Source: Malikia spinosa (GTDB lineage Bacteria > Pseudomonadota > Gammaproteobacteria > Burkholderiales > Burkholderiaceae_C). Taken from it: a DNA stretch of 63,942 nt. Location: assembly GCF_002980625.1 (NCBI RefSeq), contig NZ_PVLR01000046.1, positions 1-63,942 on the forward strand, read 5' to 3'. Below are positions 12,443 to 35,819 of this stretch, piece by piece. A model generated the notes under the pieces. That model worked only from the letters and a program-made list of their open reading frames with translations. It was not told the DNA's origin and did not search any database. How positions within the stretch are numbered: the stretch's first letter is position 1; each line of letters begins with the position of its first letter. Position numbers and translations under genes: made by a program.

Positions 12443-12504
12443 GGGTAGCTCCTCTTTATTGACTAACGGATAACAGGGGGAATGCGGAAAACTGGCTCAG
12501 CGCT

Positions 12505-14280: not shown

Positions 14281-14406
14281 ATAAATGCCTCCTATTTGTA
14301 TTAGATTGTTGCTTTGCAGCAATTAGCTCAGTAACCTGGGTCAAACTAGGTATGGCTACTAGCATATCTCATTTATCCAGCCTCTTTCATTTCAGTTCTG
14401 AATCAT

Positions 14407-15531: not shown

Positions 15532-15600
15532 GGCGGGCGCAGCAGGGCTGAAGTGAAGGATGATCCGATTGTGCGAGAATGATCTGATCATTTTTCTTCG

Positions 15601-16158: not shown

Positions 16159-17218
16159 ACAGCCGCCGCGCCAGCGGCGAGCCCGCCGCGAGGTCGCGGC
16201 TGTCGAGCTGGTCGTACAGCGCCTCAAGCTCGGTGCCGACCTGATCGAGCACCTGGGCATCCAGCGGCACGCCGCGCTCGTCGGTCAAGCGCCCTTCCAT
16301 CACGGTTTCGAGCGTCTGGGCGGCTTCGCGCAACCTGGCATAGGGGTTTTCCGAGCGCAGGCTCTTGGAGACATCGAACAGCAGGTCGAACTCGAGCAAG
16401 GCGCTCTGGTTCGGGTCCTCGGCCAGCGCGGCACGGATCTCGAACTGCAGCACCGCCAGCGGACCCGAGGCGGTGTCCTGCGCCGGCAGCACCATGCGGC
16501 CCGGAATCGCGCCGGGCAGAAAGCCGGCCCGCTCGGCCTGCTGCACGATGTAGCCAGGACTCCAGGCCGCGCGCGTGGCGCGGATCTTGAACGACATCTG
16601 CGCGTCATGCTCGCTGGCGAACTGGTCGAGCTCGCGCGCACGCGCCACCTCGGCCATCATGTCGGGGAAGTCGACATGGGCCGCGAGCTGATCGGCCAGC
16701 AGCTGGGTCTTGTTGACGAACTCGGAGAACTCGATCTCGTTGAGCGCGCCGGCACGGTTGGCCAGCTGCACGCCCGCCTGCAGGCTCTGGTACTGACGTC
16801 CCGGGCGCGGCAGCTCCCAGCTGGCGCTGTCGGAGTGATAGGCCTCGACCGCAAACGGCTTGCTGCCGATGCGGCGCGAACGCGGCATGGCGGCCAGCAC
16901 GGCTTCGCCCGCGACCGGGTGGTCGGGCACCAGCGTGACCAGCACGTCGATCAGCGGATCGAGCTGGCTGCGCGCAACCAGGCTGGTCCCGGCCTGGCCC
17001 TGCGGCACCAGGGTCTCGAAATCGTCCATCGAGGGCTCGACCCGGCCCTGCTGCGGCAGCGGGTCGTGGAACGGCGCGCCGTCAAGCCCCGGCTCGAGCT
17101 CGGGCCCGCCCTGGGAGCGCAGCGGCAGATTGCGCTGGGTGGACCAGCGGTTGTAGAGCAGCACGGCCAGCACGACCGCACCCCCTATTGCCGCCAAACC
17201 GATTTGTAGATTCGTCAT
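16151..17218 (-). CDS. zipA: Cell division protein ZipA-like
   Basis: A 355-residue inner-membrane protein. One N-terminal membrane helix (about residues 4-22, NLQIGLAAIGGAVVLAVLLY) is followed by a proline- and charge-rich linker and a C-terminal domain of about 150 residues like the FtsZ-binding domain of ZipA (GRMVLPAQDTASGPLAVLQF). ZipA tethers FtsZ to the membrane at the division site. The start is 2 bp after the stop of smc, so the two are co-transcribed, an order common in beta-proteobacteria. ligA, which often follows zipA there, is absent; a convergent NUDIX gene takes its place. Confidence 0.82.
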   Translation of the reverse strand: MTNLQIGLAAIGGAVVLAVLLYNRWSTQRNLPLRSQGGPELEPGLDGAPFHDPLPQQGRVEPSMDDFETLVPQGQAGTSLVARSQLDPLIDVLVTLVPDHPVAGEAVLAAMPRSRRIGSKPFAVEAYHSDSASWELPRPGRQYQSLQAGVQLANRAGALNEIEFSEFVNKTQLLADQLAAHVDFPDMMAEVARARELDQFASEHDAQMSFKIRATRAAWSPGYIVQQAERAGFLPGAIPGRMVLPAQDTASGPLAVLQFEIRAALAEDPNQSALLEFDLLFDVSKSLRSENPYARLREAAQTLETVMEGRLTDERGVPLDAQVLDQVGTELEALYDQLDSRDLAAGSPLARRLFS

Positions 17219-17220
17219 AT

Positions 17221-20200: not shown

Positions 20201-20745
20201 TTCGAGGTCTCGCGCCGGCGCTCCTTGTACTTCGAGACGCCGGCAGCCTCCTCGAGGAACAGGCGCAGCTCCTCGGGCCGGCTCTCGATGATGCGGCTGA
20301 TCGTGCCCTGGCCGATGATGGCGTAGGCGCGCGGGCCCAGGCCGGTGCCCAGGAACACGTCCTGCACGTCGCGCCGTCGCACCGCCTGGTTGTTGATGTA
20401 GTAGCTGCTGCTGCCGTCACGCGTCAGCACGCGCTTGACCGCGATCTCGGCGTATTGCGCCCACTGGCCGCCGGCGCGGTGGTCGGCGTTGTCGAACACC
20501 AGCTCGACGCTGGCGCGGCTGGCGGGCTTGCGCTGGGTGGTGCCGTTGAAGATCACGTCCTGCATCGACTCGCCGCGCAGCTCGCTGGCCTTGGACTCGC
20601 CCAGCACCCAGCGCACGGCATCCATGATGTTGGACTTGCCGCAGCCATTGGGCCCCACCACGCCCACGAGCTGGCCGGGCAGGCTGAAAGTGGTCGGTTC
20701 GGCGAAGGACTTGAAGCCGGAGAGCTTGATGGTATGGAGGCGCAC
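17221..20745 (-). CDS. smc: Chromosome segregation protein SMC
   Basis: A 1174-residue ATPase that organises and compacts the chromosome together with ScpA/ScpB. Walker A is GPNGCGKSNIMDAVRWVLGE near residue 32; two long coiled coils flank a hinge near residues 500-640; the C-terminal head has the signature LLSGGEKALTAIALVFAIF and the Walker B/D-loop LLDEVDAPLDDANTERY. Length and architecture are normal. Near residues 577-590 in the hinge, a short AT-rich patch of rare codons holds a 14-bp sequence repeated elsewhere in the window. zipA follows immediately. Confidence 0.96.
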   Translation of the reverse strand: MRLHTIKLSGFKSFAEPTTFSLPGQLVGVVGPNGCGKSNIMDAVRWVLGESKASELRGESMQDVIFNGTTQRKPASRASVELVFDNADHRAGGQWAQYAEIAVKRVLTRDGSSSYYINNQAVRRRDVQDVFLGTGLGPRAYAIIGQGTISRIIESRPEELRLFLEEAAGVSKYKERRRETSNRLSDTRENLLRVEDILRELNANLDKLEKQAEVASRYHQLQSQVTLRQQQLWWLKRRDAEVELALVRAEGLQALNLLEGRMAELRRTEAELEAVRQAHYDAGDLLNQAQAGLYEAGAEVAKLEAEIRYVVEGRSRVLQRLDQLKEQIAQWQQRQQDAEQELERLAEQNESAAEQAEILAAQCEEQAELLPALEDSLRRAQGQVQQQRASVTQVQQAIQVLAAEQRGIAEQQRQLRQRRERLAADQQALAAPDESRLDQLREQLEASQEQRELAAARLDELQELQPRLEQARREAQSDVNREGKWETDLSARLEALRALQDKLKTDGKLSPWLARHGLDGLQGLWSRLQVEPGWEVAVESALRERMGALEVSRLDQLQAFAADAPPAKLAFFSLPDNMSLTQLKGHSNLIPLAQRLRLHDAGLQALLSEWLAGCWSAEALDSALAARDQLAPGQGIWTPVGHSVGSHHVAFYAPDSEQAGLLARAQEIENLDRQWRAQTLLLEQSRLALTRAESAYADATQRLGQGRREAQDAQARAHEQEVELLRLAQQAEQARARREQIADDLAELDAQLEALQERSLMAEARFEELDLQLADSQERHLQLEDGAIDAERRLAQAREQLRALERQAQEAQFSERSLQARRSELQRAIETAAQQSRALADELQRARDELARLSDAAAQGGLQDAIERRLQREQALAAQRSQYDELTARLRASDEQRQQHERSLDPLRARITEFQLKEQAAQLGLEQHSQSLREAGADLEALAIGIEADGVKLHGLQAEIDRGQREITSLGAVNLAALDELSSARERKTFLDSQSADLNEAMQTLEDAIKKIDGETRELLGSTFETVNQHFSRMFPDLFGGGQARLIMTGDEILDAGVQVMAQPPGKKNQTIHLLSGGEKALTAIALVFAIFQLNPAPFCLLDEVDAPLDDANTERYAKLVSRMSSETQFLFISHNKIAMEMARQLIGVTMQEQGVSRIVAVDMETAAGMMETA
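19000..19013 (+). repeat. TTGCGTAAGTGACA motif, copy 1 (inside smc)
   Basis: The 14 bases lie inside the SMC hinge coding region, in codons for S-L-T-Q spelled TCA CTT ACG CAA, followed by TTG AAA. These are rare choices next to the strongly GC-ending codons around. The identical 14-mer occurs in cbiB and its first ten bases in cobU. Function unknown. Confidence 0.7.
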
Positions 20746-20878
20746 GGAAACCAGGCAGGGGAAAACCCTGGATTATCCCGCAAGGGATGCGGCGGTGCAG
20801 CAGAACCTGCGCCCTGCCCTGGCCCTTGGTAACGCCCATGGACCCGGCCGTGTGCAGGATCGCCCGGATGCCCAGGCC

Positions 20879-20917
20879 AAAAAAAGCCGGCTGGCCCCCA
20901 TTCAGACGCCAGCCGGC
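20879..20917 (-). terminator. Rho-independent terminator after ppsA
   Basis: GCCGGCTGG (20886-20894) pairs with CCAGCCGGC (20909-20917). On the minus strand the stem is followed by a run of seven T residues (the A-run at 20879-20885 of the given strand). It lies 52 bp after the ppsA stop and before the smc start region, so it ends the ppsA transcript. Confidence 0.8.
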
Positions 20918-20969
20918 CCTGTTGCCGGTTCGAACCGGGCCCGCAGCGGGCCCGGAACCAGGACAGTGA

Positions 20970-23360
<2,391 letters not shown>

Positions 23361-23540
23361 GGGAAAACTCCACTAAGTTGAAAAAATCGGTTCCCGGCTG
23401 GCGCGCTGACCTGTTGTTGTGCTGTTGTGCGGTCGCGGCGCAGCATCGCTGTGCAATTCGGGATAATCAGAAACATTGTAGGGGCCGCGCGGGCTGCGCG
23501 CCGTCCGTTTCACGACAATCGAACCGAGAGTAAGTACCAG

Positions 23541-24362
23541 ATGCCGCATCGCACCGCTTTCTTCATCTCCGACGGCACCGGCATCACGGCCGAGACCTTC
23601 GCCAATGCGATCCTGGCCCAGTTCGAGATCAAGCCGCACCGCATCCGCCTGCCCTTCGTCGACAGCGTGGACAAGGCGCACCAGGCGGTGCACCAGATCA
23701 ACCACAGCGCCAAGGTCGACGGCAGCCGGCCGCTGGTGTTCACGACCGTGGTCAACATGGAAGTGCTCGCGGTGCTCAAGTCCGAGTGCAAGGGCATGCT
23801 GATCGACATGTTCGGCACCTTCATCGCGCCGCTGGAGGCCGAGCTCGGCATCAAGTCGAACCACCGGGTCGGGCGCTTCTCGGATGTGACGCGGACCCAG
23901 GCCTACCACGACCGGATCGAGGCGATCAACTTCACGCTCGCGCATGACGACGGCCAGACCCATGTCGATTTGGCGAATTCGGACCTGATCCTGATCGGGG
24001 TCAGCCGCAGCGGCAAGACGCCGACCTCGCTCTACCTGGCGATGCAGTTCGGGCTCAAGGTCTCGAACTACCCGCTGATCCCGGAGGACTTCGAGCGCCG
24101 CCAGCTGCCACCGGCGCTGGTGCCGTTCAAGAAAAAGCTGTTCGGCCTGACGATACAGGCCGAACGCCTGAGCGAGATCCGCCACGAGCGCAAGGCCAAC
24201 TCGCGCTATGCCAGCCTGGTCAACTGCCGCTACGAGGTCAGCGAGGCCGAGGCCATGATGCGCCGCGCCGGCGTGCGCTGGCTGTCGACCACCAGCAAGT
24301 CGATCGAGGAGATCTCGACCATCATCCTGCAGGAGATCAAGCCCGAGCGGCTCGACTACTGA
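23541..24362 (+). CDS. ppsR: PEP synthase regulatory protein (kinase/pyrophosphorylase)
   Basis: A 273-residue DUF299-family bifunctional enzyme: ADP-dependent threonine kinase and phosphate-dependent pyrophosphorylase acting on PEP synthase. It begins MPHRTAFFISDGTGITAET and has the P-loop GVSRSGKTPTSLYLA near residue 153. An upstream in-frame start 38 codons earlier is rejected because the family begins at MPHRT. It is divergent from its target gene ppsA, a conserved arrangement; the 180 bp between them must hold both promoters. It ends 13 bp from the convergent unknown gene. Confidence 0.93.
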   Translation: MPHRTAFFISDGTGITAETFANAILAQFEIKPHRIRLPFVDSVDKAHQAVHQINHSAKVDGSRPLVFTTVVNMEVLAVLKSECKGMLIDMFGTFIAPLEAELGIKSNHRVGRFSDVTRTQAYHDRIEAINFTLAHDDGQTHVDLANSDLILIGVSRSGKTPTSLYLAMQFGLKVSNYPLIPEDFERRQLPPALVPFKKKLFGLTIQAERLSEIRHERKANSRYASLVNCRYEVSEAEAMMRRAGVRWLSTTSKSIEEISTIILQEIKPERLDY

Positions 24363-24375
24363 CGGTCAGGCGGCC

Positions 24376-25266
24376 TCAGTAATAGCAGTTCGCCAGGCGG
24401 GCGCGCGAAGTCTCGACCACCGGCTGGTAGGCCGCCCCCAGCGTGGACAGTCGCTGGATCGAGGCCAGCACCAGTTGCTGGTTCGCCGATGCGCCCGGTG
24501 CGGGTGGGTGGATCGACAGCAACTGCACGCCGGACTTGAGGCGGTTGGCGTCGAGCCTGGCCTTGATCCGGTTGACCGCGTCGGTATACAGGGCGTCCTT
24601 CTTCATCCATTCATCGATGTCGATCTTGCCGTTGGCGAGGTCATCGGTGAGGGCGGCCTGGATCGTCTTCATGTCGATGAAGTTCTTGGCATCGATGACC
24701 GCCGCACCGAAGCTGGCCTCGGACTTGACATCGTCGATGCTCTGCATGAAGCGGTAATAGACGGCGGTCGTGGTGACGGCCTCGCTGCCGAAAGTGTCGA
24801 CGTCCTTGATGTTGATGGACGAGGCGTACAGGAAGGCAAAAAGGCCGGGCGACAGGCGGTTCATCGAGAACGACAGGCTGGCCGACGCGGTCGATGAGGA
24901 CTTGGCGGCCTCGGCGACCGTGTTGACGACATCGGTGTAGGTCTTGATCGCCTCCGGGCTCATGGCCGGCTTCTTGGCCAGCGGATCTTGCGCCGCGGCG
25001 ATGGCAGCCAATGACTTGGTCACGACGGCGGCGATCTTGTCGAGGCTGAACTCGCTGCTGTACTCGGTCTTGATGTCGGAATTGTAGGAAAGCTCGCGGG
25101 CGTCCGTCACGCCGGCGTCCTTCAGGTGGCCCTCGATCTCGGCATAGAAGCGGGCCTTGTTGTCCGCCTCCTGGGCCAGGATCATTGTCTGCAGCTTGTC
25201 GATCTGGTTCTTCGCCGCCACGGTCTTGTCGGCGACGCTCTGAACCGATCCTGAATTGCATGCCAT
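24376..25266 (-). CDS. Uncharacterised 296-residue helical protein
   Basis: I do not recognise this protein. It begins MACNSGSVQSV after an AGGGAG site; an upstream start six codons earlier is less likely. It has no clear signal peptide. The sequence looks mostly alpha-helical and alanine-rich, with one moderately hydrophobic middle segment (LSPGLFAFLYASSIN, near residues 145-160) between amphipathic helices. It ends in an unusual cysteine-containing tail NCYY. A long helix, hydrophobic segment, long helix layout recalls alpha-helical pore-forming proteins in outline only. It is convergent with ppsR and separated by 155 bp from the next minus-strand gene upstream, so it is probably monocistronic. 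Confidence 0.6.
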   Translation of the reverse strand: MACNSGSVQSVADKTVAAKNQIDKLQTMILAQEADNKARFYAEIEGHLKDAGVTDARELSYNSDIKTEYSSEFSLDKIAAVVTKSLAAIAAAQDPLAKKPAMSPEAIKTYTDVVNTVAEAAKSSSTASASLSFSMNRLSPGLFAFLYASSINIKDVDTFGSEAVTTTAVYYRFMQSIDDVKSEASFGAAVIDAKNFIDMKTIQAALTDDLANGKIDIDEWMKKDALYTDAVNRIKARLDANRLKSGVQLLSIHPPAPGASANQQLVLASIQRLSTLGAAYQPVVETSRARLANCYY

Positions 25267-25421
25267 GTTTTTCTCCCTGTTCATGTGGTTTTGCGCTGCT
25301 GATACTGCAGCGGCCTGCAGCTCAAGTCAAGCGAGCCCCACGGGCCGATCGAAGCCAGATTGAAGCCGCATTGAAGCCACATGGGGGGCAGCGGGCTGCC
25401 GCAACGGGCGCTCAGTAACGC

Positions 25422-27659
25422 TCAGTACTTGAGCCGCGCGTAATAGGTCTGCTGGGCGGCCGCGCGCGCCTGGCCCAGGGTGTGGATGCCCTTTTCGGCC
25501 AGCAGCGGGATCAGGCGCAGGAAGATCTCGGCCGTGACCAGCGCATCGCCCAGGGCGTTGTGGCGGCCCTGGACAGCCAGGTTGAAGCGCTGCGCGATGG
25601 CCTCGATCCGGTGCGACTGCTGGCTCGGGTGCACCAGAGCCGACAGCAGCAGGGTGTCGAGCACGGGCTGGTCGAAGCGGATGCCGGTGCCCGCCTCGAG
25701 CAGCTGCAAAAAGCGCAGGTCGAACGCCGCGTTATGCCCGACCAGCACCGTGTCGCGCGCAAAGGCGTGAAAGGCCGGCAGCACCCGCTCGATGGTCGGC
25801 TGGCCCCGGACCATGTCCTGCTGGATGCCGTGGATCGGGATGCCGGCGGGCGGAATCATGCACTGCGGATCGACCAGCTGGTCGAAGGTTTCCTGGCGCA
25901 GCAGCTTGCCGTTGACGATGCGGGCGGCACCGATCTGCAGGATCTGGTCGCCGCCGGCCGGATTGAGCCCGGTGGTCTCGGTGTCGAAGACGGTGTAGAC
26001 CAGGTCGAGCAGCGGGCGGTCGTCAAGCGCACTGGCCTGCTCCGAGCGGCTGAACAGGTCGAAGTCGTAGAACTCGGGCCGGCCCACCGCCTCGGCGGCC
26101 GCAGCCTCGGGCAAGACGGCAGCCTGCCGGGGTGCGACGCCTGGCAGCAGGAAGCGGAAGAAGGACAGGTGGCTGGCACGGTCACGCTCGAACCAGAGCG
26201 CGCCGCCATGGCGCTCGACCACGTCGCGCACCGAAAAAGAATAGGACTCCTGGCCGATGCGCACCGGGTCGAGCTCCCAGCCCATGACGGTCTCGGTGCT
26301 GATCGCGGGACCGGTCCACATCAGGTCGAGATGAACCCGCGCCGAACCGGTCGGCGCTGGCTGCAGCCGCAGCTGGATGAAGCGGACCGAGAGCTCGTCC
26401 TGCAGCCTGGCTGCCAGGTAGACCAGGACCTGCAGCAGGCTGAAGCTCTCGATGCGCAGCCAGGCGGCGGGGTCGACCTCGGCCTCGCGCGCCGACAGGC
26501 CGGCCTGCTGCTCGATGCGGCGCAGCGCGGCGGTGACGAAATCGCTGCCGAGCATGTCCTCCATCGGCCAGCGGCTGGACAGGCGCTCGGAGGCCTCGCT
26601 GACCAGCGGCTTGAGCCGCTCGCCCATGGCCTGGGCCTCGTCGCGCACCACGCGCAGGAAGCGCTCACGCATGGCCGGCTCGAGGTCGGGGAAGTCGAGC
26701 ATCTCGAGCGCGGCCTGGATGCTGGCCAGCGAGGCCCGGCTGCCCTCGGTCAGGGTCTGCAGCGCGCGGTCGCGCTCGGCCTGCTGTTCGTAGTCGGGCA
26801 TCACGTCGTCGAGCATCAGCACATAGCCCGCGATGTCCTGCTCGGCAGCGCTGCCGGCGGCCGGACGCACCGGCGCGAGCTGGACCCGCAGCAGCTGGCC
26901 GGCGGGCGTGAGCGTGACGAACTGGGCCGAGGGCTGGGGCGCGCCGCGGCGCATGCGCTGGCGCACGTTCTCGAGCGCGTGCTCGACCAGCTGGCGGTCG
27001 AACAGGGCGTGGATCGAGCGCCCCAGGCCGAGCAGGCCGCTGTCGGCCACCGTCTGGCCGGGCTGGCCCGGTTGCCCCGGCTGACCCGGTGCAGTGGCCT
27101 GGCCGGCTGGCGCGAGGTCGCGAAACTGGGCCCGCGCGCGCTGGTTGTAGAGCAGGATGCGGCCGTCGAGGTTGCAGACCACCACGCTCTGGGTCAGCTC
27201 GGCCATCAGCGCGGCCAGGCGCGATTTCTCCTCCTCGATGCGCTGGGCGGCGGCCTGGACCTTGCTGTCCATCTCGTGGCGCAGGGTCTCGCGCTGCTCG
27301 ACCAGCTGGTTGAACAGCCGGGCCAGGGCGCGCGTCTCGGGGTTGCCGGCAGGCGCGAGCTCGCGCACCACGTCGGTACGCAGCAGGATCTGCGCTTCCT
27401 CGGCCAGCCGCACCGAGGGCGTGACCCAGAAGTCGAACCAGCGCTTGAGGCCGTAGGCGATCGCGGCGATGCCACCGGCCCAGGTCAGGCCGACCAGCGC
27501 CAGGTGCGGGCCGACCAGCTCGAAGGCAGCCGCGCGCTGGGCTGGCTCCAGGGTCGCGGCCACCAGCGCAAAGGTCAGCGCCAGCCAGGCGATCGAGGTC
27601 AGCGCCGCGATGGCCAGCATCAGCCACAGGCGCCGGTCGGTGCGCCCGGGCCGGTTCAT
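25422..27659 (-). CDS. Membrane pseudo-histidine kinase fused to a DEDDh 3'-5' exonuclease
   Basis: A 745-residue fusion. Two membrane helices (about 11-35 and 48-70) are followed by a HAMP-like and coiled-coil stretch, a PAS-like domain (about 150-290; VVVCNLDGRILLYNQRA) and a degenerate histidine-kinase core. Where HELRTPL-type sequence is expected it reads TEGSRASLASIQ, so the phospho-acceptor histidine is absent. The C-terminal 180 residues are an intact proofreading-type exonuclease: FDTETTG (Exo I), GHNAAFDLRFL (Exo II) and HNALGDALVTA (Exo III). The C-terminal domain should hydrolyse 3' ends of DNA or RNA; what the membrane sensor does to it is unknown. The start overlaps the stop of the receiver gene, and a GQP-rich repeat lies in the PAS region. 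Confidence 0.8.
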   Translation of the reverse strand: MNRPGRTDRRLWLMLAIAALTSIAWLALTFALVAATLEPAQRAAAFELVGPHLALVGLTWAGGIAAIAYGLKRWFDFWVTPSVRLAEEAQILLRTDVVRELAPAGNPETRALARLFNQLVEQRETLRHEMDSKVQAAAQRIEEEKSRLAALMAELTQSVVVCNLDGRILLYNQRARAQFRDLAPAGQATAPGQPGQPGQPGQTVADSGLLGLGRSIHALFDRQLVEHALENVRQRMRRGAPQPSAQFVTLTPAGQLLRVQLAPVRPAAGSAAEQDIAGYVLMLDDVMPDYEQQAERDRALQTLTEGSRASLASIQAALEMLDFPDLEPAMRERFLRVVRDEAQAMGERLKPLVSEASERLSSRWPMEDMLGSDFVTAALRRIEQQAGLSAREAEVDPAAWLRIESFSLLQVLVYLAARLQDELSVRFIQLRLQPAPTGSARVHLDLMWTGPAISTETVMGWELDPVRIGQESYSFSVRDVVERHGGALWFERDRASHLSFFRFLLPGVAPRQAAVLPEAAAAEAVGRPEFYDFDLFSRSEQASALDDRPLLDLVYTVFDTETTGLNPAGGDQILQIGAARIVNGKLLRQETFDQLVDPQCMIPPAGIPIHGIQQDMVRGQPTIERVLPAFHAFARDTVLVGHNAAFDLRFLQLLEAGTGIRFDQPVLDTLLLSALVHPSQQSHRIEAIAQRFNLAVQGRHNALGDALVTAEIFLRLIPLLAEKGIHTLGQARAAAQQTYYARLKY

Positions 27660-28030
27660 GGCTGCGCCCCGAGCAGGCTGCGCACCTTGTCGACCAGCTC
27701 GCGGGTCGAGAACGGCTTGGTCATGTAGTCATTCGCGCCGAGCGCCAGGCCCTTGGCCATGTCGGTGTCGCGGCCCTTGGCCGTCAGCATCAGGATCCGG
27801 ATGCCGGCGAGCTCGTCGTGCTCGCGCACAGCCTGGCAGACATCGAAGCCGGTCTTGATCGGCATCATGACGTCGAGCAGGACCAGGTCGGGGCGCTGCT
27901 GCAAGATGGTGTCGAGCGCCTGCTGGCCGTCGCGCGCGACCAGCACGCGGTAGCCCTCGCGCTGCATCAGGAATTCGAGCGAGAGCAGGATGTTGGGCTC
28001 GTCGTCGGCGATCAGTATCGTGGCGCTCAT
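27656..28030 (-). CDS. Receiver-only response regulator
   Basis: A 124-residue stand-alone receiver domain. The acidic pocket is IADDEPN, the phosphorylation site D53 lies in LLDVMMP, and the conserved lysine is in YMTKPFS. There is no DNA-binding or enzymatic output domain. Its start overlaps the stop of the transporter-kinase gene and its stop overlaps the start of the exonuclease fusion, both by an ATGA. It should therefore be made together with both and receive phosphate from the upstream kinase. The related CrbS/CrbR and MxtR/ErdR systems use a response regulator with a LuxR-type output, which this protein lacks. Confidence 0.92.
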   Translation of the reverse strand: MSATILIADDEPNILLSLEFLMQREGYRVLVARDGQQALDTILQQRPDLVLLDVMMPIKTGFDVCQAVREHDELAGIRILMLTAKGRDTDMAKGLALGANDYMTKPFSTRELVDKVRSLLGAQP

Positions 28031-30819
28031 GCGCGGTCTCCATTCTTGTCGTTATCGGGGGCGCCCAGCGGCAGCCAGAAGCTGAAGCAGGCGCCCTGCC
28101 CCGGCTGCGAACGCAGCTCGATCTGGCCGCCGAAATGCTCGATGATCTGGCGGCTGATCGGCAGGCCGAGGCCGGTGCCCTGCGGGCGCTGACTCGCGTC
28201 GCCGCCCTGGCGGAACTTCTCGAACACCAGCGCCTGCTGCTCGGGCGCTACCCCGGGTCCATTGTCCTGCACTTCGACCTGGACGCGGTCGCGCTGCAGC
28301 GCAAGACCGATCCGGATCTGGCCGCTGCCGGCGGGCACGAACTTGGCCGCGTTCGAGAGCAGGTTGATCATGACCTGGGTCAGGCGGTCGGGGTCGGCAC
28401 GCAAGATCACCGGCGACTCGGGCAGATCGAGGGTAAGCAAGGCACCGCGCTCGCGCAGCAGCTCGGCGACGGTATCGGCGCTGCGGCGGATCAGGGCCAC
28501 GAGGTCGAGCTCGGCATGCTGCCATTCGGCGTGGCCGGACTCGATCTTGGCCATGTCGAGCACCTGGTTGACGAGCCGGCCCAGGCGCTCGGTCTCGGCG
28601 ACGATGATGGCCAGGAAGTTCTGCCGCTGCTCCAGGCGCATGGCGGGCGCACCGCCGGCTTCGGCGCGCGCGTCGTCGAGCATCAGCTCGGCCAGGGCGC
28701 GGATCGAGGTCAGCGGGGTGCGCAGCTCATGGGTGACCGAGGACATGAAGTCGTCTTTCAGCCGGTCCAGGCTCTTGAGCTGCTCGTTGGCTGCGCGCAG
28801 CTCGGCGCTGGCGCGTTCGAGCGAGAGCGACTTCTGCTCCAGCTCGCGCGAGTGCAGCAGCAGGCGCTTGGCCTCCTCGACCATCGCGAGCACGTCTTCC
28901 AGCGCCAGCGCCTCCTCCTCGACCACCGAGGCCACCATGACCCGGGCCGAGGCGCTGCCGATCGCGCCGGTCAGCTGGGTCTCGACGAAATGGACCAGCT
29001 CGGCATCGGCCTGCAAGGGCTGCAGGCGGTCGACAAGATCCAGGCGGCTCAGGTCCGAACGCCCATGCTCGCGCGCGTAACGCTCGAACAGCTCGCGCGC
29101 CCGCTCAGGCCCGAGAAAACGCTCGGCCAGCGCCAGCAAGCTGGCGACGCTGGCCTGGCCGCGCCAGAACACCGGCTGCAGCTGGCTGCTGCGCTCGAAC
29201 ACGTCGACGAACAGCAGGGCCTGGCTGGCCTCGGCCACCGAGGGGCTGCGCCAGAGCGAGACACCGACATAAAGGCCGACGTTGCCCAGCAGGCTCCAGA
29301 ACAAGGCATGGGTCAGCGGGTCGAAGCCGCCCAGGCCCAGCAGCGCTTCGGGCCGCAGCCAGTCCAGGCCCCAGGGGCCGACGCGCAGGAAGTCGTCGGC
29401 CATCCAGCCCGACTTGGCCAGCGAGGGCAGCATCAGCGTGTAGCACCAGAGCGCGAAACCGGCCAGCAGGCCGGCCAGCGCACCGTGCCGGGTGGCGCCG
29501 CGCCAGTACATGCCGCCCAGCATGGCCGGCGCGAACTGGGCGACGGCGGCAAAGCTGATCAGGCCGATGCTGACCAGCGCATAGGCCTCGCCGGCCAGGC
29601 GGAAATAGCAGTAGCCCAGCAGCATCACGGCCAGGATCGCGAGCCGGCGCGTATTGAGGATCACGCGCGTCAGGTCGTGGCGGCCCTCGGACCAGCGGCG
29701 CGTGCGCAGCAGCACCGGCACCACCAGGTCGTTGCAGACCATGGTCGAGACCGCGATGGTCTCGACGATCACCATGCCGGTAGCGGCCGACAGGCCACCG
29801 ACAAAGGCCAGCAGCGCCAGCGCCGGTTGGCCCTGGCTCAGCGGCAGCGAGAGCACGAAGCTCTCGGGGTCGGCCTGGCCGGGGCCGAAATGCAGCAGCC
29901 CGCCGAGCGCGATCGGCAGCACGAACAGGTTGATCAACAGCAGGTAGAGCGGAAAGACCCAGGCCGCGCGCCGCAGGTGGCGCTCGTCGACGTTCTCGAC
30001 CACCATGAGCTGGAACTGGCGCGGCAGCAGCAGCACCGACAGCATGGCCAGCAAGGTCAGCGCGAACCATTGCGGATGGGCAAAGGCCATGCCCTGGCCC
30101 GGCGCGAACAGGCTGGCGAGTTCGGGCTGGACCGCCGCGCGCGCGAAGATGTCGCCGACGCCGTCGAACAGGCCCCAGCAGACATAGGCGCCGACCGCCA
30201 GAAAGGCCAGCAGCTTGACCACCGACTCGAAGGCGACCGCCGCCACCAGGCCCTCGTGGCGCTCGCTGCTGTCGAGGTGGCGCGCGCCGAACATCATCGT
30301 GAAGCCGGCCAGCGCCAGCGCGAGGTAGACCGTGCTCTCCTGCCACCAGGCGCGCTCGCGCGCCAGCGCCGCGGGCACGGCGGTCAGGACATCGAAGGCG
30401 ACCGAGATGCCCTTGAGCTGCAGCGCGATATAGGGCACGATGCCGACCACCGTGATCAGCGTGACCAGACCGGCCAGCAGCGGGCTCTTGCCGTAGCGGC
30501 TCGAGATGAAGTCGGCGATCGAGGTGATGCGGTAGCGCTGGGCGATGCGCAGCATCTTGCGCAGCACCAGCCAGGCCAGCACCATCGCCAGCATCGGCCC
30601 CAGGTAGATCGGCAGGAACCAGACGCCCGAGCTGGCGGCCCGGCCCACGCTGCCGAAATAGGTCCAGGCGCTGCAGTAGACCGCCAGCGACAGCGCATAG
30701 ACCCAGGAGCTGGCAATGATCGAGCGCCCGGCTGCCGCACGCCGGTCGCCGTAAGCCGCGACCGCGAACAGGGTCAGCAGATAGGCCAGCGAGACGGCGA
30801 CGACCAGCAGCGGCGACAT
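28027..30819 (-). CDS. Solute-symporter-fused sensor histidine kinase (CrbS/MxtR-like)
   Basis: A 930-residue inner-membrane protein. The first ~490 residues are an SLC5-type sodium/solute symporter module with about 13 helices (CSAWTYFGSVGRAASSG is typical). A linker resembling the STAC domain and a coiled coil follow. The kinase core has the phospho-acceptor histidine in THELRTPLTS near residue 697 and the ATPase motifs NLLSNAAKF, DNGPGV and GTGLGLPIS. Proteins of this type couple sensing of acetate or other small carboxylates to gene control, for example acs regulation by CrbS. I chose the start MSPLLVV; the frame is open far upstream but reads as antisense of other genes. It is the first gene of the coupled trio. 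Confidence 0.9.
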   Translation of the reverse strand: MSPLLVVAVSLAYLLTLFAVAAYGDRRAAAGRSIIASSWVYALSLAVYCSAWTYFGSVGRAASSGVWFLPIYLGPMLAMVLAWLVLRKMLRIAQRYRITSIADFISSRYGKSPLLAGLVTLITVVGIVPYIALQLKGISVAFDVLTAVPAALARERAWWQESTVYLALALAGFTMMFGARHLDSSERHEGLVAAVAFESVVKLLAFLAVGAYVCWGLFDGVGDIFARAAVQPELASLFAPGQGMAFAHPQWFALTLLAMLSVLLLPRQFQLMVVENVDERHLRRAAWVFPLYLLLINLFVLPIALGGLLHFGPGQADPESFVLSLPLSQGQPALALLAFVGGLSAATGMVIVETIAVSTMVCNDLVVPVLLRTRRWSEGRHDLTRVILNTRRLAILAVMLLGYCYFRLAGEAYALVSIGLISFAAVAQFAPAMLGGMYWRGATRHGALAGLLAGFALWCYTLMLPSLAKSGWMADDFLRVGPWGLDWLRPEALLGLGGFDPLTHALFWSLLGNVGLYVGVSLWRSPSVAEASQALLFVDVFERSSQLQPVFWRGQASVASLLALAERFLGPERARELFERYAREHGRSDLSRLDLVDRLQPLQADAELVHFVETQLTGAIGSASARVMVASVVEEEALALEDVLAMVEEAKRLLLHSRELEQKSLSLERASAELRAANEQLKSLDRLKDDFMSSVTHELRTPLTSIRALAELMLDDARAEAGGAPAMRLEQRQNFLAIIVAETERLGRLVNQVLDMAKIESGHAEWQHAELDLVALIRRSADTVAELLRERGALLTLDLPESPVILRADPDRLTQVMINLLSNAAKFVPAGSGQIRIGLALQRDRVQVEVQDNGPGVAPEQQALVFEKFRQGGDASQRPQGTGLGLPISRQIIEHFGGQIELRSQPGQGACFSFWLPLGAPDNDKNGDRA

Positions 30820-30845: not shown

Positions 30846-31043
30846 TCAGTCCGGCTGCCGCTCCATCAGACAGGCCAGCGCGGCGATCAGCAGGCCCCAG
30901 AGCGCGAACAGCGCGAGCGGAAACAGCGGCAGACCCCAGAGCAGCGTGTCGCGGTTCCAGAGCGCGATCAGCGGATAGTTGAGCAGCAGGCAGCCAGCAG
31001 CGAACAGCGCCAGCAGGCGTTGCGATTCCAGTCTTGGCTTCAT
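30846..31043 (-). CDS. Small two-helix membrane protein next to the sensor kinase
   Basis: A 65-residue protein with two predicted membrane helices (about residues 10-28 and 34-58) and a charged N-terminus MKPRLESQR. It lies 26 bp upstream of the transporter-kinase gene on the same strand, so it is probably co-transcribed and may assist or stabilise the membrane sensor. I recall similar small genes at this position in related bacteria; no function is known. The divergent cNMP/CBS gene starts 157 bp away, so this intergenic region should hold the promoters of both operons. Confidence 0.65.
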   Translation of the reverse strand: MKPRLESQRLLALFAAGCLLLNYPLIALWNRDTLLWGLPLFPLALFALWGLLIAALACLMERQPD

Positions 31044-31200: not shown

Positions 31201-33024
31201 ATGCCCAACGCCTTCAACTTCTCCGCCTCCCCGTTCGACTGCCTGACGCTCGAGGAGCGCCAGTTGGTGCGCCAGAGCGTCAATGTGGGCTACTACCCCG
31301 CAGGCGCGGTGCTGCTGGCACCGCACATACCGCCGACCCATCTGTTCATCCTGATCAAGGGCCATGTCGTGCAGTGGGACGGCGAGGAGCGGGTATCGAC
31401 CTACGGGCCCGATGACTGCTTCGACGGCCGCGCGCTGCTGGCGGGCAAGGTCAGCGACCGCTTCGTCGCCGCCGAGGAGGTGGTGGCCTACGAACTCAGA
31501 CAGCAGGCGGTGACCGAGCTGATCGCCTCCAACGCTGGCTTCGGTGCGCTGCTGTTTTCCGACCTCGGCCAGCGCCTGAGCGCGCTGTCGCAGCGCCAGG
31601 ACCAGCATCAGCTCCATGCGCTGACATTGGCGCGGGTGGACGAGGCCTATCTGCGGCCCGCGCGCGAGGTCGATGCCGGCACCGACATCGTCTCGGTCGC
31701 GCGCATCCTGCAGACAGAACGGACCCACAACGTGCTGGTGCGCGATGCGCGCAGCGAGCCGCCCCGGCTCGGCATCTTCACCGTGGCCAAGCTGGCGCAG
31801 GCGATCCTGGACGGGCGCCCGCTCGACCAGCTGCCAGTCGGCGAGCTGGCCGACTACCCGCTGCTGACGGTGCAGCGCTCGGACCAGATCGGCGACGCGA
31901 TGACGCTGATGCTGAGTCACCGCGCGCACCGGGTGGTGGTGCTCGACGGGCAGCGCATCGTCGGCGTGCTCGAGTCGCTCGACCTGTTCAGCTTCCTGTC
32001 CAACCACTCGCACCTGATCAGCGCCCAGATCGAGCAGGCCCAGGCGCTCGACGCGCTGAGCCAGGCCGCCGCGCAGATCACGCGCATGATCGCGCTGATG
32101 CAGCGCAGCGGCATGCGGGTGGCCTTGATCGCCAAGCTGGTGCAGCAGCTCAACGCCCAGCTGTTCGAGCGCGCCTGGCAGCTGGTCGCACCAGCCGAGC
32201 TGGTGGCCAACAGCTGCCTGTTCGTGATGGGCAGCGAGGGGCGTGGCGAGCAGCTGCTCAAGACCGACCAGGACAACGGCCTGATCCTGCGCGACGGCTA
32301 CATGCCCCCGGCCGACCTCGACGCGATCTGCGCGCGCTTCTCGCAGGCGCTGGCCGATTTCGGCTACCCCGAATGCCCGGGCCGGATCATGGTCAGCAAC
32401 CCGGACTGGCGCGCGCCGCTGGCCGAGTTCTCGCGTCAGCTGCGCGAATGGCTGATCCTGCCCGACCCCGACAGCCTGATGAAGCTGGCGATCTTCATGG
32501 ATGCACATGCGGTCTGCGGTGATGCCGGCCTGCTGCGCCAGGCGCGCGAGGCGGTGCTGGCGCTGGCGCCCGACAACCAGGCGGTGCTGGCGCGCTTTGC
32601 CTCGGCGATCACGGCCTTTGGCGAAAGCCAGGGCTGGTGGAACAAGCTGTTCTCGCTCGGCGAGGCCGACAGCGGGCTGGACCTCAAGAAGGAAGGCATC
32701 TTCCCGCTGGTGCATGGCGTGCGCAGCCTGGCGCTGGCGCGGCAACTGACCGAGACCGGTACCGTCGCGCGCATCGCGGCGCTGGTCGCAGACGGCGCGC
32801 TCGACGCGACCATGGGCGCCGAGCTGACCGACAGCCTGAGCTTCTTCATGGGCCTCAAGCTCAAGGCCGGACTGGCCGAGATCGACACCGGGCGCACGGT
32901 CACGGGACGGATCGACCCGGCCCAGCTCAGCCCGCTCGAGCGCGACCTGCTGAAGGACACGCTGGCCGCCGTCAAGCGCTTCAAGGCGCTGCTGCGCCAG
33001 CGCTTTCACCTGGATGCGATGTGA
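31201..33024 (+). CDS. cNMP-binding-like / CBS / DUF294 nucleotidyltransferase-like protein
   Basis: A 607-residue cytoplasmic protein. The order is a cyclic-nucleotide-binding-like domain (about 15-130; YYPAGAVLLAP), a CBS pair (about 150-280) and a DUF294 domain resembling the uridylyltransferase nucleotidyltransferase fold, with GSEGRGEQLLKTDQDNGLI near residues 345-363, then a DUF294 C-terminal helical domain. Such proteins are thought to act as nucleotide-sensing regulators like GlnD, but no substrate is established. They are regularly found beside acetate permease or sensor-kinase genes, which is the case here. The downstream exonuclease-like gene starts inside its stop codon (GTGATG). 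Confidence 0.85.
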   Translation: MPNAFNFSASPFDCLTLEERQLVRQSVNVGYYPAGAVLLAPHIPPTHLFILIKGHVVQWDGEERVSTYGPDDCFDGRALLAGKVSDRFVAAEEVVAYELRQQAVTELIASNAGFGALLFSDLGQRLSALSQRQDQHQLHALTLARVDEAYLRPAREVDAGTDIVSVARILQTERTHNVLVRDARSEPPRLGIFTVAKLAQAILDGRPLDQLPVGELADYPLLTVQRSDQIGDAMTLMLSHRAHRVVVLDGQRIVGVLESLDLFSFLSNHSHLISAQIEQAQALDALSQAAAQITRMIALMQRSGMRVALIAKLVQQLNAQLFERAWQLVAPAELVANSCLFVMGSEGRGEQLLKTDQDNGLILRDGYMPPADLDAICARFSQALADFGYPECPGRIMVSNPDWRAPLAEFSRQLREWLILPDPDSLMKLAIFMDAHAVCGDAGLLRQAREAVLALAPDNQAVLARFASAITAFGESQGWWNKLFSLGEADSGLDLKKEGIFPLVHGVRSLALARQLTETGTVARIAALVADGALDATMGAELTDSLSFFMGLKLKAGLAEIDTGRTVTGRIDPAQLSPLERDLLKDTLAAVKRFKALLRQRFHLDAM

Positions 33025-33680
33025 TGGAGCCGCCGCTGATTCCCGGCCGCTGGGCCCAGGCGATCCGGCGCGAATGGCGCCTGCGCCAGCTCAAGGACCC
33101 GGCCTACGCTTTCCTGTTCGAGCCCGCCCCGGCTGACGAATGGGTGTCGCTGGCCTGCGCGACCAGCGGGCATGACCTGGCGCGCGACCAGATCCTGTCG
33201 GTCTGCGCCCTGCGCGTCAGCGGCCAACGGGTGCTGGCCAGCGAGCGGCTCGAGCTGCTGCTGAAACCAACGCGCCCGGTGCCGCCCGAGGCGCTGCGCA
33301 CGCACCGGCTGCGCGAGCAGGAGCTGGCGCAGGGACTGGAAGCCAAGGAAGCGATGCAGCGGCTGCTGCGCTTCATCGGCAGCCGGCCGCTGCTGGGCTA
33401 CTACCTCGAATTCGACCTCGCGCTGCTCGAGCAGCTGATCCGGCCGCTGATCGGGGTCGGGCTGCCGCAACCGGCGGTCGAGGTGTCGGCGCTCTACCAC
33501 GAGTGGCAGTTCCGCCAGCTGCCGCCCTACCAGCAGCAGGGCGACGCCGCGATCGACCTGCGCTATGCCTCGATGCTCGAGCAGCTGGGGCTGCCGGTGC
33601 GCGAGGCGCCCGATCCGCTCGACCGCGCGGTACTGACGGCGCTGGCCTTCATCAAGTTGCGCCAGCTGCAGGTCGGCTGA
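33024..33680 (+). CDS. Exonuclease-fold protein with a damaged catalytic site
   Basis: A 218-residue protein with the DnaQ-like DEDDh exonuclease fold. In active relatives the first motif reads like LDCETTG; here it is LACATSG, so both metal-binding acidic residues are alanine (GCC for GAC, GCG for GAG). The second motif is LLGYYLEFDLALL, keeping its aspartate. The third, DPLDRAVLTAL, keeps an aspartate but not the usual histidine. It is therefore probably not a nuclease, but might still bind a nucleotide or nucleic-acid end. It is translationally coupled to the cNMP/CBS/DUF294 gene. I recall homologues with intact motifs in this gene pair, but could not check. Confidence 0.75.
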   Translation: MEPPLIPGRWAQAIRREWRLRQLKDPAYAFLFEPAPADEWVSLACATSGHDLARDQILSVCALRVSGQRVLASERLELLLKPTRPVPPEALRTHRLREQELAQGLEAKEAMQRLLRFIGSRPLLGYYLEFDLALLEQLIRPLIGVGLPQPAVEVSALYHEWQFRQLPPYQQQGDAAIDLRYASMLEQLGLPVREAPDPLDRAVLTALAFIKLRQLQVG

Positions 33681-33783: not shown

Positions 33784-35514
33784 TCAGTGACCCGATGCGC
33801 CCGAGGCACCCAGGCCGGTCTCGGAGCGGACCTTCTGCACCGCGTAGGCGGCGCGCTCGTTGGCGGCGTCCTTGCTGCGGTCGAGGATCGAGAACAGCCA
33901 GATGCCGACGAAGCCGATGGTCATCGAGAACAGAGCCGGCGAGCTGTACGGGAACCAGGCCGAGCCCTTGGGGTTGCCGAGCGTGGCTTCCCAGACCGAG
34001 GGCGAGACCACGGTCAGGGCGACCGAGGAGAACAGGCCCAGGAAGCCGCCGATCACGGCGCCCTTGGTGGTGCAATCCTTCCACAGCACGCTCATGAAGA
34101 GCACCGGGAAGTTGGCCGAAGCCGCGATCGCGAAGGCCAGCGACACCATGAAGGCGATGTTCTGCTTCTCGAAGGCAATGCCCAGGGTCACAGCCAGCAC
34201 GCCGAGTGCCAGGGTGGTGATGCGCGAGACCTTGAGCTCGGAAGCGCTGTCGGCCTTGCCCTTCTTGAACACGGTGGCGTAGAGGTCGTGCGAGACAGCG
34301 GAGGCACCCGACAGGGTCAGGCCAGCCACCACGGCCAGGATGGTCGCGAAGGCCACGGCCGAGATGAAGCCGTAGAACACGTTGCCGCCGACGCTCTTGG
34401 CGACCAGCACGGCTGCCATGTTGGCGGTACCGGCACCACCCAGGATGATGCCCTTGGCGACGTCAGCCATCTCGGGGTTGGTCAGCACCAGGGTGATGGC
34501 ACCGAAACCGATGATGAAGATCAGGATGTAGAAGTAGCCGATCCAGGTGGTGGCCCAGAACACCGACTTGCGGGCTTCCTTGGCGTCCGGCACGGTGAAG
34601 AAGCGCATCAGGATATGCGGCAGACCGGCGGTACCGAACATCAGCGCCATGCCGAAGCTGATGGCGGAGATCGGGTCCTTGATGAAGCCGCCCGGGCCCA
34701 TGATGGACAGGCCAGCAGCAGCAGCCTCTTCCGGCGTCTTGCCCGTGTTGGCAGCAATCGCGGTCTTGACTTCAACGCCCTTGGCGAACAGCGCCTCGAA
34801 CGAGAAACCGTACTGCGACATCACCATGAAGGCCATGAAGGTCACGCCCGACAGCAGCAGCACAGCCTTGATGATCTGCACCCAGGTGGTGGCAGTCATG
34901 CCGCCGAACAGCACATAGATCATCATCAGCGCGCCGACGATCACCACCGCCATCCAGTACTCGAGGCCGAACAGCAGCTTGATCAGCTGGCCGGCACCCA
35001 CCATCTGGGCGATCAGGTAGAAGGCGACCACGACCAGCGTGCCCGAGGCCGCAAAGGCGCGGATCGGAGTCTGCTTGAAGCGGTAGCCGGCCACGTCGGC
35101 GAAGGTGAACTTGCCGAGGTTGCGCAGGCGCTCGGCCATCAGGAAGGTGATGACGGGCCAGCCGACCAGGAAGCCGATCGAGTAGATCAGGCCGTCATAG
35201 CCGTTGGCCATCACGGCGGCGGAAATACCCAGGAAGGAAGCAGCCGACATGTAGTCGCCCGCGATCGCCAGGCCGTTCTGGAAGCCGGTGATGCCGCCAC
35301 CGCCGGTGTAGAAGTCGGCAGCCGACTTGGTCTTGGACGCCGCCCATTTGGTGATGTAGAGCGTGCCGCAGACGAACAGGCCGAACATCGCGATGGCGGT
35401 CCAGTTGGTCGCCTGCTTGGCCGACTCGCCGACGTCACCGCCGGCGGCGTGGGCCGCGCCGGCGGCCGCGAGGACCAGCAGCGCGCCCAGGAATGCGCTA
35501 AGGTTTTTCTTCAT
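33784..35514 (-). CDS. actP: Cation/acetate symporter
   Basis: A 576-residue SLC5-family permease with a cleavable-looking N-terminal signal ([19 protein letters not shown]) and about 13 further helices. Characteristic stretches include [29 protein letters not shown] and [15 protein letters not shown]. It takes up acetate, and in E. coli also glycolate, with a cation. Its start overlaps the stop of the preceding DUF485 gene by an ATGA, the usual yjcH-actP arrangement. The neighbouring sensor kinase carries a symporter-like domain of the same superfamily, so sensing and uptake of the same class of substrate is a sensible inference. Confidence 0.93.
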
Positions 35515-35819
35515 TTTGCGGCGTCCTTCAGGATTTCCTTGGTCAGCTCGTCGAACTCGCCGTTGGCGCGACGGACGTAGATGCCGGTGATCACGATCGT
35601 GAACACGATCACGGCCATGCCGATCGGAACGCCGACCGTGGTCACACCTGCACCCAGGGGCTGGGCCAGGAAGGGTTTGTTGAAGGCGATCAGCGCGATG
35701 TAGCCGTAGTACACGACCAGCATCAGGATGGACAGCAACACGCCGAAGCTGTTGCGCTTGGACTGAAGTTCCTGGTATTTGGGATTTTTCAGGATCTTGT
35801 CGACTACCGGATCACTCAT
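35511..35819 (-). CDS. yjcH: DUF485 membrane protein (YjcH)
   Basis: A 102-residue inner-membrane protein of the DUF485 family. It begins [21 protein letters not shown]-like (the first twenty residues), then has two membrane helices, about 28-50 and 60-82. YjcH-type proteins are nearly always encoded just before acetate permease ActP and are assumed to help it, though the mechanism is unknown. It overlaps actP by 4 bp. The 125 bp upstream contain a near-CRP-like palindrome. Confidence 0.9.

What the first reader, a model, noticed from the sequence alone, without database searches (positions are those of the whole stretch)
25422..30819. Coupled trio: transporter-kinase, output-less receiver, and membrane pseudo-kinase fused to an intact exonuclease
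Three genes overlap by ATGA. The kinase (H near 697) and the receiver (D53) look active, but the receiver has no output domain. The third protein carries two membrane helices, HAMP/PAS-like regions and a kinase-like core that lacks the phospho-acceptor histidine, ending in a DEDDh exonuclease with all motifs intact. The layout suggests that a carboxylate or nutrient signal controls a membrane-tethered nuclease or a nucleotide-degrading activity. Two-component control of a 3'-5' exonuclease is not something I know to be described. The upstream kinase belongs to the CrbS/MxtR type.
Basis: partly seen in the sequence, partly recalled or inferred. Interest (0 to 1): 0.78.

Follow-up and report, generated by a model that had tools for sequence, protein, structure and literature searches.

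The report
Transporter-kinase circuit controlling membrane-tethered exonuclease
Many proteobacteria carry a three-gene circuit in which a carboxylate-transporter-like kinase and a lone receiver protein appear to control a membrane-anchored dead kinase fused to an intact DNA/RNA-chewing enzyme, which would be a new kind of output for bacterial two-component signalling.

Summary
Three ATGA-overlapping genes encode an SLC5-type histidine kinase (H697), an output-less receiver (D53) and a 745-aa fusion: two hydrophobic segments, a PAS-like region, a histidine-kinase core that lost its phospho-acceptor (Glu305) and ATP-site residues, and an intact DEDDh exonuclease. The layout is widespread: of 121 distinct fusion loci with enough upstream sequence (mostly beta/gamma, some alpha/delta), 85 have kinase and receiver adjacent. 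In 150 family genomes fusion (35) and kinase (34) co-occur in 31; 7.9 expected. Only the pseudo-kinase's DHp segment drifts faster where the receiver is absent; an Arg matching the one that docks DivK~P in the pseudo-kinase DivL is kept in 90 of 90 receiver-linked rows. Best reading: carboxylate signal, kinase, receiver~P, DivL-like docking, control of the exonuclease. The exonuclease looks like the partner of a DUF294 nucleotidyltransferase: live exonucleases never exceed DUF294 copies in 72 hand-picked genomes. The claim that such control is undescribed is partly wrong: MxtR/ErdR controls an exonuclease gene's transcription in P. putida. The kinase is not CrbS/MxtR by architecture. Activity, substrate and docking are untested; phylogeny-corrected support is weak.

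The parts
25422..27659 (-). Fusion protein (P0001, 745 aa): 2 hydrophobic segments (10-38, 53-71), PAS-like (about 148-292), pseudo-DHp (about 293-360; Glu305 in place of His, Arg308 kept), pseudo-CA (about 361-512), conserved RPEFYDFDLF linker, DEDDh exonuclease (557-713); inner borders approximate
25521..25991 (-). DEDDh exonuclease domain, catalytic D559, E561, D647, H700, D705 intact
27656..28030 (-). Stand-alone receiver (P0002, 124 aa), phospho-acceptor D53, no output domain
28027..30819 (-). SLC5-type histidine kinase (P0003, 930 aa), H697, N-box and G-boxes intact, no PAS, no C-terminal receiver
30846..31043 (-). Small protein (65 aa), no Pfam match, recurrently just upstream of the kinase in relatives
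31201..33024 (+). cNMP-binding/CBS/DUF294 nucleotidyltransferase (P0004); GS...DQD motif present
33021..33680 (+). Stand-alone PRK09145-type exonuclease homologue (P0005), catalytic residues lost: D,E,D,H,D read A,A,D,P,R
33784..35514 (-). ActP cation/acetate symporter
35511..35819 (-). DUF485 protein beside ActP
20970..24362 (.). Metabolic context: phosphoenolpyruvate synthase (20970-23360, -) and its regulator PpsR (23529-24362, +)

Best explanation
The trio is a two-component relay whose output is an enzyme. The SLC5-domain kinase responds to a monocarboxylate (acetate or pyruvate; inferred from neighbours) and phosphorylates the lone receiver. The receiver~P docks on the DHp-like bundle of the membrane-anchored fusion, which can no longer be a kinase, as DivK~P docks on the pseudo-kinase DivL. 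Docking shifts the PAS/DHp/CA rod and so turns the fused DEDDh exonuclease up or down. The exonuclease works with or against a DUF294 nucleotidyltransferase, as the working stand-in for the PRK09145-type stand-alone exonuclease of the acetate/pyruvate genes. Shown by sequence: the genes, intact and lost residues, conserved linkage, co-occurrence. Supported statistically but not proven: receiver-dependent constraint on the DHp segment, pairing of exonuclease with DUF294. Inferred: phosphotransfer, docking, sign of regulation, signal. Unknown: substrate (RNA, DNA or a nucleotidylated protein).
For: Linkage: of 121 distinct loci with at least 1.3 kb upstream, 92 have the receiver and 85 kinase and receiver (the script missed three truncated trios, L142, L143, L180). 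Found without using the exonuclease: an N-terminal profile hits 20 of 300 genomes of the order, and 17 of 17 full-length relatives carry DEDDh intact. Co-occurrence: fusion 35, kinase 34, both 31 of 150 genomes (7.9 expected). Pseudo-kinase. Docking: at 70-80% exonuclease identity, DHp identity is 0.49 between trio pairs and 0.27 between pairs without receiver, TM/HAMP 0.35 and 0.35; the regression effect of lacking a receiver is seen in DHp alone (-0.102 +- 0.036). Arg308 (H+3) is kept in 90 of 90 receiver-linked rows and 18 of 26 without; DivL Arg553, also at H+3, is needed for DivK~P binding (PMC4211667, section 10 read). Loci without local receiver but with kept DHp: 10 of 11 genomes hold a trio-type kinase elsewhere; of 10 distinct beta/gamma genomes with drifted or deleted DHp, none does. 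DUF294: live exonucleases never exceed DUF294 copies in 72 of 72 genomes; of 13 genomes with both exonuclease genes, 7 of 7 with two DUF294 keep both intact, 6 of 6 with one have one dead.
Against: The phylogeny-aware test has only 3 supported independent pairs (2.0-2.6 concordant, 0-0.1 discordant on average) and cannot reach significance. Exceptions: L060 keeps a moderate DHp without kinase; L098 and L091 have a trio-type kinase yet drifted DHp; L075 and L076 count as kept against their nearest trio relative (0.69) but score only 0.41 against the trio consensus, like some drifted ones. Fourteen of 32 genomes searched have a fusion but no trio-type kinase (some are incomplete MAGs), so the exonuclease has some receiver-independent role or other inputs. 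The two losses behind the DUF294 rule are two evolutionary events, the 72 genomes were hand-picked and the rule was framed on part of them; 15 of 72 have more DUF294 than live exonucleases. One of the seven both-intact genomes (G668) has its second DUF294 only as a broken piece at a contig end, and one counted stand-alone copy (G359) has a stop in the match. pp_0353 deletion in P. putida gave a pyruvate, not an acetate, phenotype (PMC9927547), so the signal is uncertain.
Confidence: 0.56

Rival explanations
1. The receiver works elsewhere (phosphate sink, or partner of another protein) and the fusion senses its own signal through its membrane/PAS part; the three genes are only co-expressed.
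For: Fusions exist in genomes without a trio-type kinase (14 of 32 searched) and still keep DEDDh; PAS is more conserved than DHp.
Against: Only the DHp segment relaxes when the receiver is missing; Arg308 is invariant only with a receiver; REC-FUS distances correlate 0.84; ATGA-type coupling of receiver and fusion in 55 of 89 trios (the script picks the start nearest to that overlap, so this is an upper figure).
Confidence: 0.22
2. The fusion is a pseudo-kinase that regulates the SLC5 kinase (heterodimer or receiver sequestration); the exonuclease acts independently of the phosphorelay.
For: Pseudo-kinases that tune other signalling proteins are known (DivL; a ChrS pseudo-kinase, PMC9491836, seen in a search listing only); kinase and fusion cores are homologous.
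Against: Fusion of every full-length copy to an intact nuclease (17 of 17) is unexplained by a purely regulatory role.
Confidence: 0.12
3. The exonuclease is a housekeeping DnaQ-like proofreading or repair enzyme that happens to be membrane tethered.
For: Closest solved domain by profile is a PolC exonuclease (2p1j, 8.9e-49).
Against: The genome has its own DnaQ (322.8 bits, cut-off 196); the fusion is below the equivalog cut-offs for epsilon and PolC; it occurs in 93 of 399 family genomes, linked to DUF294 and carboxylate-type symporters.
Confidence: 0.06
4. The exonuclease domain is inert and structural.
For: The other exonuclease homologue P0005 is an open pseudo-enzyme gene (dN/dS 0.11-0.58).
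Against: All five catalytic residues intact wherever the domain is complete (94 of 94 non-gap rows, partly ascertained by motif; 17 of 17, not so ascertained); dN/dS 0.04-0.23.
Confidence: 0.04

Closest known systems
DivK-DivL (Caulobacter) pseudo-histidine-kinase docking
   Same: Stand-alone receiver; PAS plus histidine-kinase core with non-His acceptor and kept H+3 Arg; profile match to DivL 4q20 (E 4.5e-4)
   Different: Acceptor position is Glu/Asp, not Tyr; ATP-site motifs gone; output is a covalently fused exonuclease, not another kinase; the partner kinase is an SLC5 transporter-kinase in the same operon
CrbS/CrbR (MxtR/ErdR) acetate two-component system
   Same: SLC5-domain kinase; neighbours resemble its regulon (ActP, DUF485, cNMP/CBS/nucleotidyltransferase protein, RNase_T exonuclease); that resemblance rests on domain content and gene order in the papers, not on an alignment
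   Different: No PAS, no hybrid receiver domain, partner is an output-less receiver rather than a LuxR-type activator; would act on an enzyme rather than on transcription
CbrA (transceptor kinase)
   Same: SLC5 domain aligns with PDB chain 10ed, 'histidine kinase' (3.6e-78), which I take to be CbrA from a 2026 preprint seen in a listing
   Different: No PAS here; CbrB is a transcription activator (literature)
PP_0353-type 3'-5' exonuclease with cNMP/CBS/nucleotidyltransferase protein PP_0354
   Same: RNase_T exonuclease in an operon with the presumed DUF294 protein; controlled by an SLC5-kinase system (transcriptionally, PMC9927547)
   Different: Stand-alone, not fused; the corresponding PRK09145-type gene in the window's genus has lost its catalytic residues while the fusion is intact
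PolC / DnaQ-type DEDDh exonucleases
   Same: Family and catalytic residues
   Different: Fused to a membrane pseudo-kinase; not the replicative subunit

Membership tests
CrbS/MxtR hybrid kinases | N-terminal SLC5/SSF domain | tested here: met
   SSF 2e-8; 10ed 3.6e-78 over residues 6-469
CrbS/MxtR hybrid kinases | 13 transmembrane helices | tested here: inconclusive
   hydropathy finds 9 segments at a strict threshold, some possibly merged
CrbS/MxtR hybrid kinases | STAC domain between SLC5 and kinase | not tested
   no STAC model was used; about 110 residues lie there
CrbS/MxtR hybrid kinases | PAS domain and C-terminal receiver (hybrid) | tested here: not met
   Pfam finds SSF, HisKA, HATPase_c and a weak HATPase_c_2 only
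CrbS/MxtR hybrid kinases | LuxR-family response regulator partner | tested here: not met
   adjacent partner is receiver only, 124 aa
Active histidine kinases (the fusion) | phospho-acceptor His, N-box Asn, G-boxes | tested here: not met
   Glu305; N-box and G-box letters lost
DivL-type pseudo-histidine kinases | histidine-kinase core with non-His acceptor | tested here: met
DivL-type pseudo-histidine kinases | kept receiver-docking Arg at H+3 | tested here: met
   Arg308 in 90 of 90 receiver-linked non-gap rows; role of DivL Arg553 from PMC4211667; correspondence by H+3 position, not by alignment to DivL
DivL-type pseudo-histidine kinases | binds a phosphorylated stand-alone receiver | not testable with these tools
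   needs binding assay
DEDDh exonucleases (RNase_T) | family score and five catalytic residues | tested here: met
   115.6 bits vs 24; D559 E561 D647 H700 D705
DEDDh exonucleases (RNase_T) | 3'-5' exonuclease activity | not testable with these tools
   needs biochemistry
DNA polymerase III epsilon / PolC | score over the curated equivalog cut-off; sole epsilon of the genome | tested here: not met
   94.6 vs 196 and 138.5 vs 873 bits (it does pass the broad subfamily domain model TIGR00573); separate DnaQ
PRK09145 exonuclease (P0005) | score over cut-off | tested here: met
   223.4 vs 189 bits
PRK09145 exonuclease (P0005) | catalytic DEDHD | tested here: not met
   AADPR in the window and in congeners G001-G004; DEDHD in every other copy that I aligned in those calls

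The most novel reading that the evidence does not exclude
The DUF294 protein writes a nucleotide onto a target (a protein such as the carboxylate symporter, or an RNA end) and the DEDDh exonuclease erases it: a nucleotidylation cycle with a transporter-kinase and receiver controlling the eraser through a pseudo-kinase. A DEDDh enzyme releases 5'-NMP from an R-O-P bond, so de-nucleotidylation is chemically possible (inference from known chemistry, recalled). The never-more-live-exonucleases-than-DUF294 pattern and the dead duplicate in the window's genus are what such a writer-eraser pair would leave.
Probability: 0.22. Interest if true: 0.9.

Novelty: new variant of a known kind. Interest (0 to 1): 0.72.

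Why it matters
Two-component outputs are mostly transcription factors, c-di-GMP enzymes or protein-binding domains. A receiver that controls a nuclease fused to a retired kinase would add a nucleic-acid-degrading (or de-nucleotidylating) output and show how DivL-type pseudo-kinases become effectors. It would also give a handle on the puzzling nucleotidyltransferase/exonuclease pair of the acetate/pyruvate regulon, of which the exonuclease gene matters for P. putida growth on pyruvate for reasons its authors call unclear (PMC9927547).

Tried and rejected
Plain mutual exclusion of fusion and stand-alone exonuclease: in 150 genomes 3 overlaps against 6.1 expected and none seen with both intact (P 0.0011), but the 399-genome sample, which includes those 150, gave 13 overlaps against 18.6 expected, 7 with both intact. 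Rejected; replaced by the DUF294-count rule, which was framed after seeing those seven.

Exonuclease-only derivative in G021: the upstream part is a run of X/N, so no evidence. G019's fusion exonuclease is a frameshifted remnant, not a functional truncation.

My first mapping of the acceptor (an Arg replacing His) was wrong; the profile alignment puts Glu305 on His697.

Catalytic conservation in the first scan is biased, as its search patterns were exonuclease motifs; hence the N-terminal-only profile.

Duplicates: nine loci were dropped; one search found five more near-identical pairs, and its counts replace those. One search was not rerun without them.

Phylogeny-corrected test lacked power. 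In it, genomes with only hybrid-type partial matches (L095, L100, L101, L047, L053) were scored as having no trio-type kinase. Two papers of DUF294/HEPN context (PMC3710099, passages) gave nothing decisive.
Full report
What is there. The kinase (28027-30819) has SSF, HisKA and HATPase_c domains and H697; the receiver (27656-28030) is 124 aa with D53 and nothing after it; the fusion (25422-27659) has two hydrophobic segments, a PAS-like stretch, a kinase-like core and an RNase_T exonuclease with D559, E561, D647, H700 and D705. For the single sequence Pfam sees neither HAMP nor HATPase in the fusion and PAS only below threshold; a profile of 66 sequences matches a histidine kinase of known structure over profile positions 249-494 (4i5s 6.7e-19) and PolC exonuclease over the C-terminal part (2p1j 8.9e-49). 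Against the neighbouring kinase's own core (hhalign E 1.8e-17) Glu305 takes the place of His697, Arg308 that of Arg700, and the N-box and G-box residues have no counterpart. By sequence the fusion is a full pseudo-kinase.

Neighbourhood. Around the trio lie a DUF294 nucleotidyltransferase with cNMP-binding and CBS domains (31201-33024), a stand-alone PRK09145-type exonuclease homologue (33021-33680), ActP (33784-35514) and DUF485, and phosphoenolpyruvate synthase with its regulator PpsR (20970-24362). In P. fluorescens a DUF485 protein, ActP and Pflu5625, a cAMP-binding/CBS/nucleotidyltransferase protein, belong to the CrbS/R regulon (PMC5715377, passages read). In P. putida ErdR binds the promoter of pp_0354 (CBS protein), which forms an operon with pp_0353 (RNase_T); pp_0353 deletion impaired growth on pyruvate, as did actP-I deletion (PMC9927547, passages and sections 7-8 read). 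That P0004 and P0005 correspond to PP_0354 and PP_0353 is my inference from domains and gene order; I had no sequence of those proteins to align.

Distribution. A scan of genome contigs gave the best 80 loci, in Burkholderiales, Rhodocyclales, other Gammaproteobacteria including Colwellia, and Deltaproteobacteria (capped at 80; its search patterns were exonuclease motifs). Paracoccus plasmids carry DUF294, small protein, kinase, receiver and fusion in a row. Pooling loci from several searches and removing duplicates (nine, five more pairs) leaves 132 distinct fusion loci; of 121 with at least 1.3 kb upstream, 92 have the receiver and 85 also the kinase, and three more trios (L142, L143, L180) were missed by the script because their fusion is truncated. 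Marivivens and P. yeei have a receiver and the fusion but no local SLC5 kinase. In a search with the N-terminal part alone, 20 of 300 genomes of the order are positive at 21 places, the window's own included; of the 20 other places fetched, 14 have the trio and all 17 full-length copies have DEDDh intact; L141, L142 and L143 are cut or broken. In 150 genomes of the window's family, fusion and kinase occur in 35 and 34 and together in 31; kinase without fusion hit: G021 (an N-interrupted fusion elsewhere), G386, G404; fusion without kinase: G006, G327, G342, G349. Pairwise distances of the three proteins correlate (REC-FUS 0.84, HK-FUS 0.74; 89 trios).

Does the receiver touch the pseudo-kinase? 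Three sequence tests agree, none phylogenetically decisive. First, at 70-80% exonuclease identity the DHp-like segment is 49% identical between trio members but 27% between members without a receiver, while TM/HAMP (35% and 35%) does not differ and PAS (66/57) and CA (52/45) differ less (85 trio and 26 receiver-less loci). A regression on nearest trio relatives finds the effect in DHp only (-0.102 +- 0.036, t -2.8), and none in TM/HAMP, PAS, CA or linker. Second, Arg308 is kept in 90 of 90 non-gap rows with a receiver and 18 of 26 without. It sits at H+3; in DivL Arg553 (acceptor position Tyr550) is required for DivK~P binding (PMC4211667, outline and section 10 read). Third, for 11 receiver-less loci with a DHp at least 45% identical to the nearest trio, 10 genomes contain a trio-type kinase elsewhere, in 7 of the 10 beside a receiver and a second fusion (L060 is the exception); for 10 distinct beta/gamma genomes with a drifted or deleted DHp none does. 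Against the trio consensus two of the ten kept ones (L075, L076) score only 0.41, no better than some drifted ones. Among deltaproteobacteria L098 has the kinase yet a drifted DHp, and L095, L100, L101 have only other SLC5 kinases; L091 has receiver and kinase with DHp at 0.28. A tree-based test has only three supported independent pairs and cannot decide; on average 2.0-2.6 are concordant and 0-0.1 discordant, and the control segments show no trend.

What the exonuclease is for. The fusion scores below the equivalog cut-offs of epsilon and PolC and the genome has its own DnaQ. The stand-alone homologue P0005 has lost catalytic residues (AADPR) in the window and in G001-G004, the five members of the genus examined, whereas every other copy that I aligned reads DEDHD. 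The dead gene stays open, with dN/dS 0.11-0.58 against 0.04-0.23 for the fusion's exonuclease. Conversely G019 has an intact stand-alone copy and a frameshifted fusion exonuclease. I first read this as mutual exclusion, but in 399 genomes 13 hold both genes (18.6 expected) and seven have both intact. Those seven each show two DUF294 matches (one of G668's is a broken piece at a contig end); the six with one DUF294 have one dead exonuclease, and congener G614 of G019 has two DUF294 and both live. Over 72 hand-picked genomes live exonucleases never exceed DUF294 matches; the numbers are equal in 57 and DUF294 is in excess in 15; of 18 genomes with neither exonuclease 14 lack DUF294. The GS...DQD motif is found in 89 of 91 DUF294 homologues beside the fusion. 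This points to a functional pair of nucleotidyltransferase and exonuclease; the losses are two independent events, and the rule was framed on part of these data.

Mechanism. I propose signal, SLC5 kinase, receiver~P, DivL-like docking to the fusion, change of exonuclease activity next to the membrane, acting with or against DUF294. Phosphotransfer, docking and direction are inferred; the substrate is open (mRNA, as the authors speculate for PP_0353; DNA; or a nucleotidylated protein, since Pflu5625 is predicted to nucleotidylate proteins, PMC5715377).

Novelty. Ten searches of the paper library and term searches inside PMC5715377, PMC5436829, PMC9100948 and PMC7918813 showed no kinase-nuclease fusion or receiver-controlled exonuclease. 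The STAC founding paper (Korycinski 2015) was not read. Subscription journals are mostly absent, so absence from print is not proven. Parts are known, the assembly is not, to my knowledge: a new variant of a known kind. Compared with the draft, counts were corrected for duplicates and the confidence lowered slightly for that and for L075/L076.

Noticed in passing
window 33021-33680: Catalytically dead but open PRK09145-type exonuclease gene overlapping DUF294; same residue losses in the five genus members examined, possibly kept as a pseudo-enzyme subunit.
   Followed up: yes
L244 and L245 (genomes of L073 Competibacter, L077 Contendobacter): A further fusion copy lies upstream of the SLC5 kinase, an order different from the usual kinase-receiver-fusion; no receiver was detected between them.
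   Followed up: no
L020, L022: Symporter (DUF4212- or DUF485-linked), DUF294, receiver and a diverged fusion without local SLC5 kinase; which kinase feeds the receiver is unknown.
   Followed up: partly
window 11261-24362: PEP synthase and PpsR beside the trio, and a thiolase and PhaC further off, suggest a pyruvate/acetate assimilation and storage region.
   Followed up: partly
window 24376-25284: 302-aa ORF just downstream of the fusion with no Pfam or NCBIfam match at the thresholds used.
   Followed up: no
window 30846-31043: 65-aa protein recurrently preceding the SLC5 kinase in relatives; no Pfam match.
   Followed up: partly
L098 about position 305 of the fusion: One deltaproteobacterial fusion has a His at the acceptor column, but without the H+3 Arg; probably chance.
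   Followed up: no
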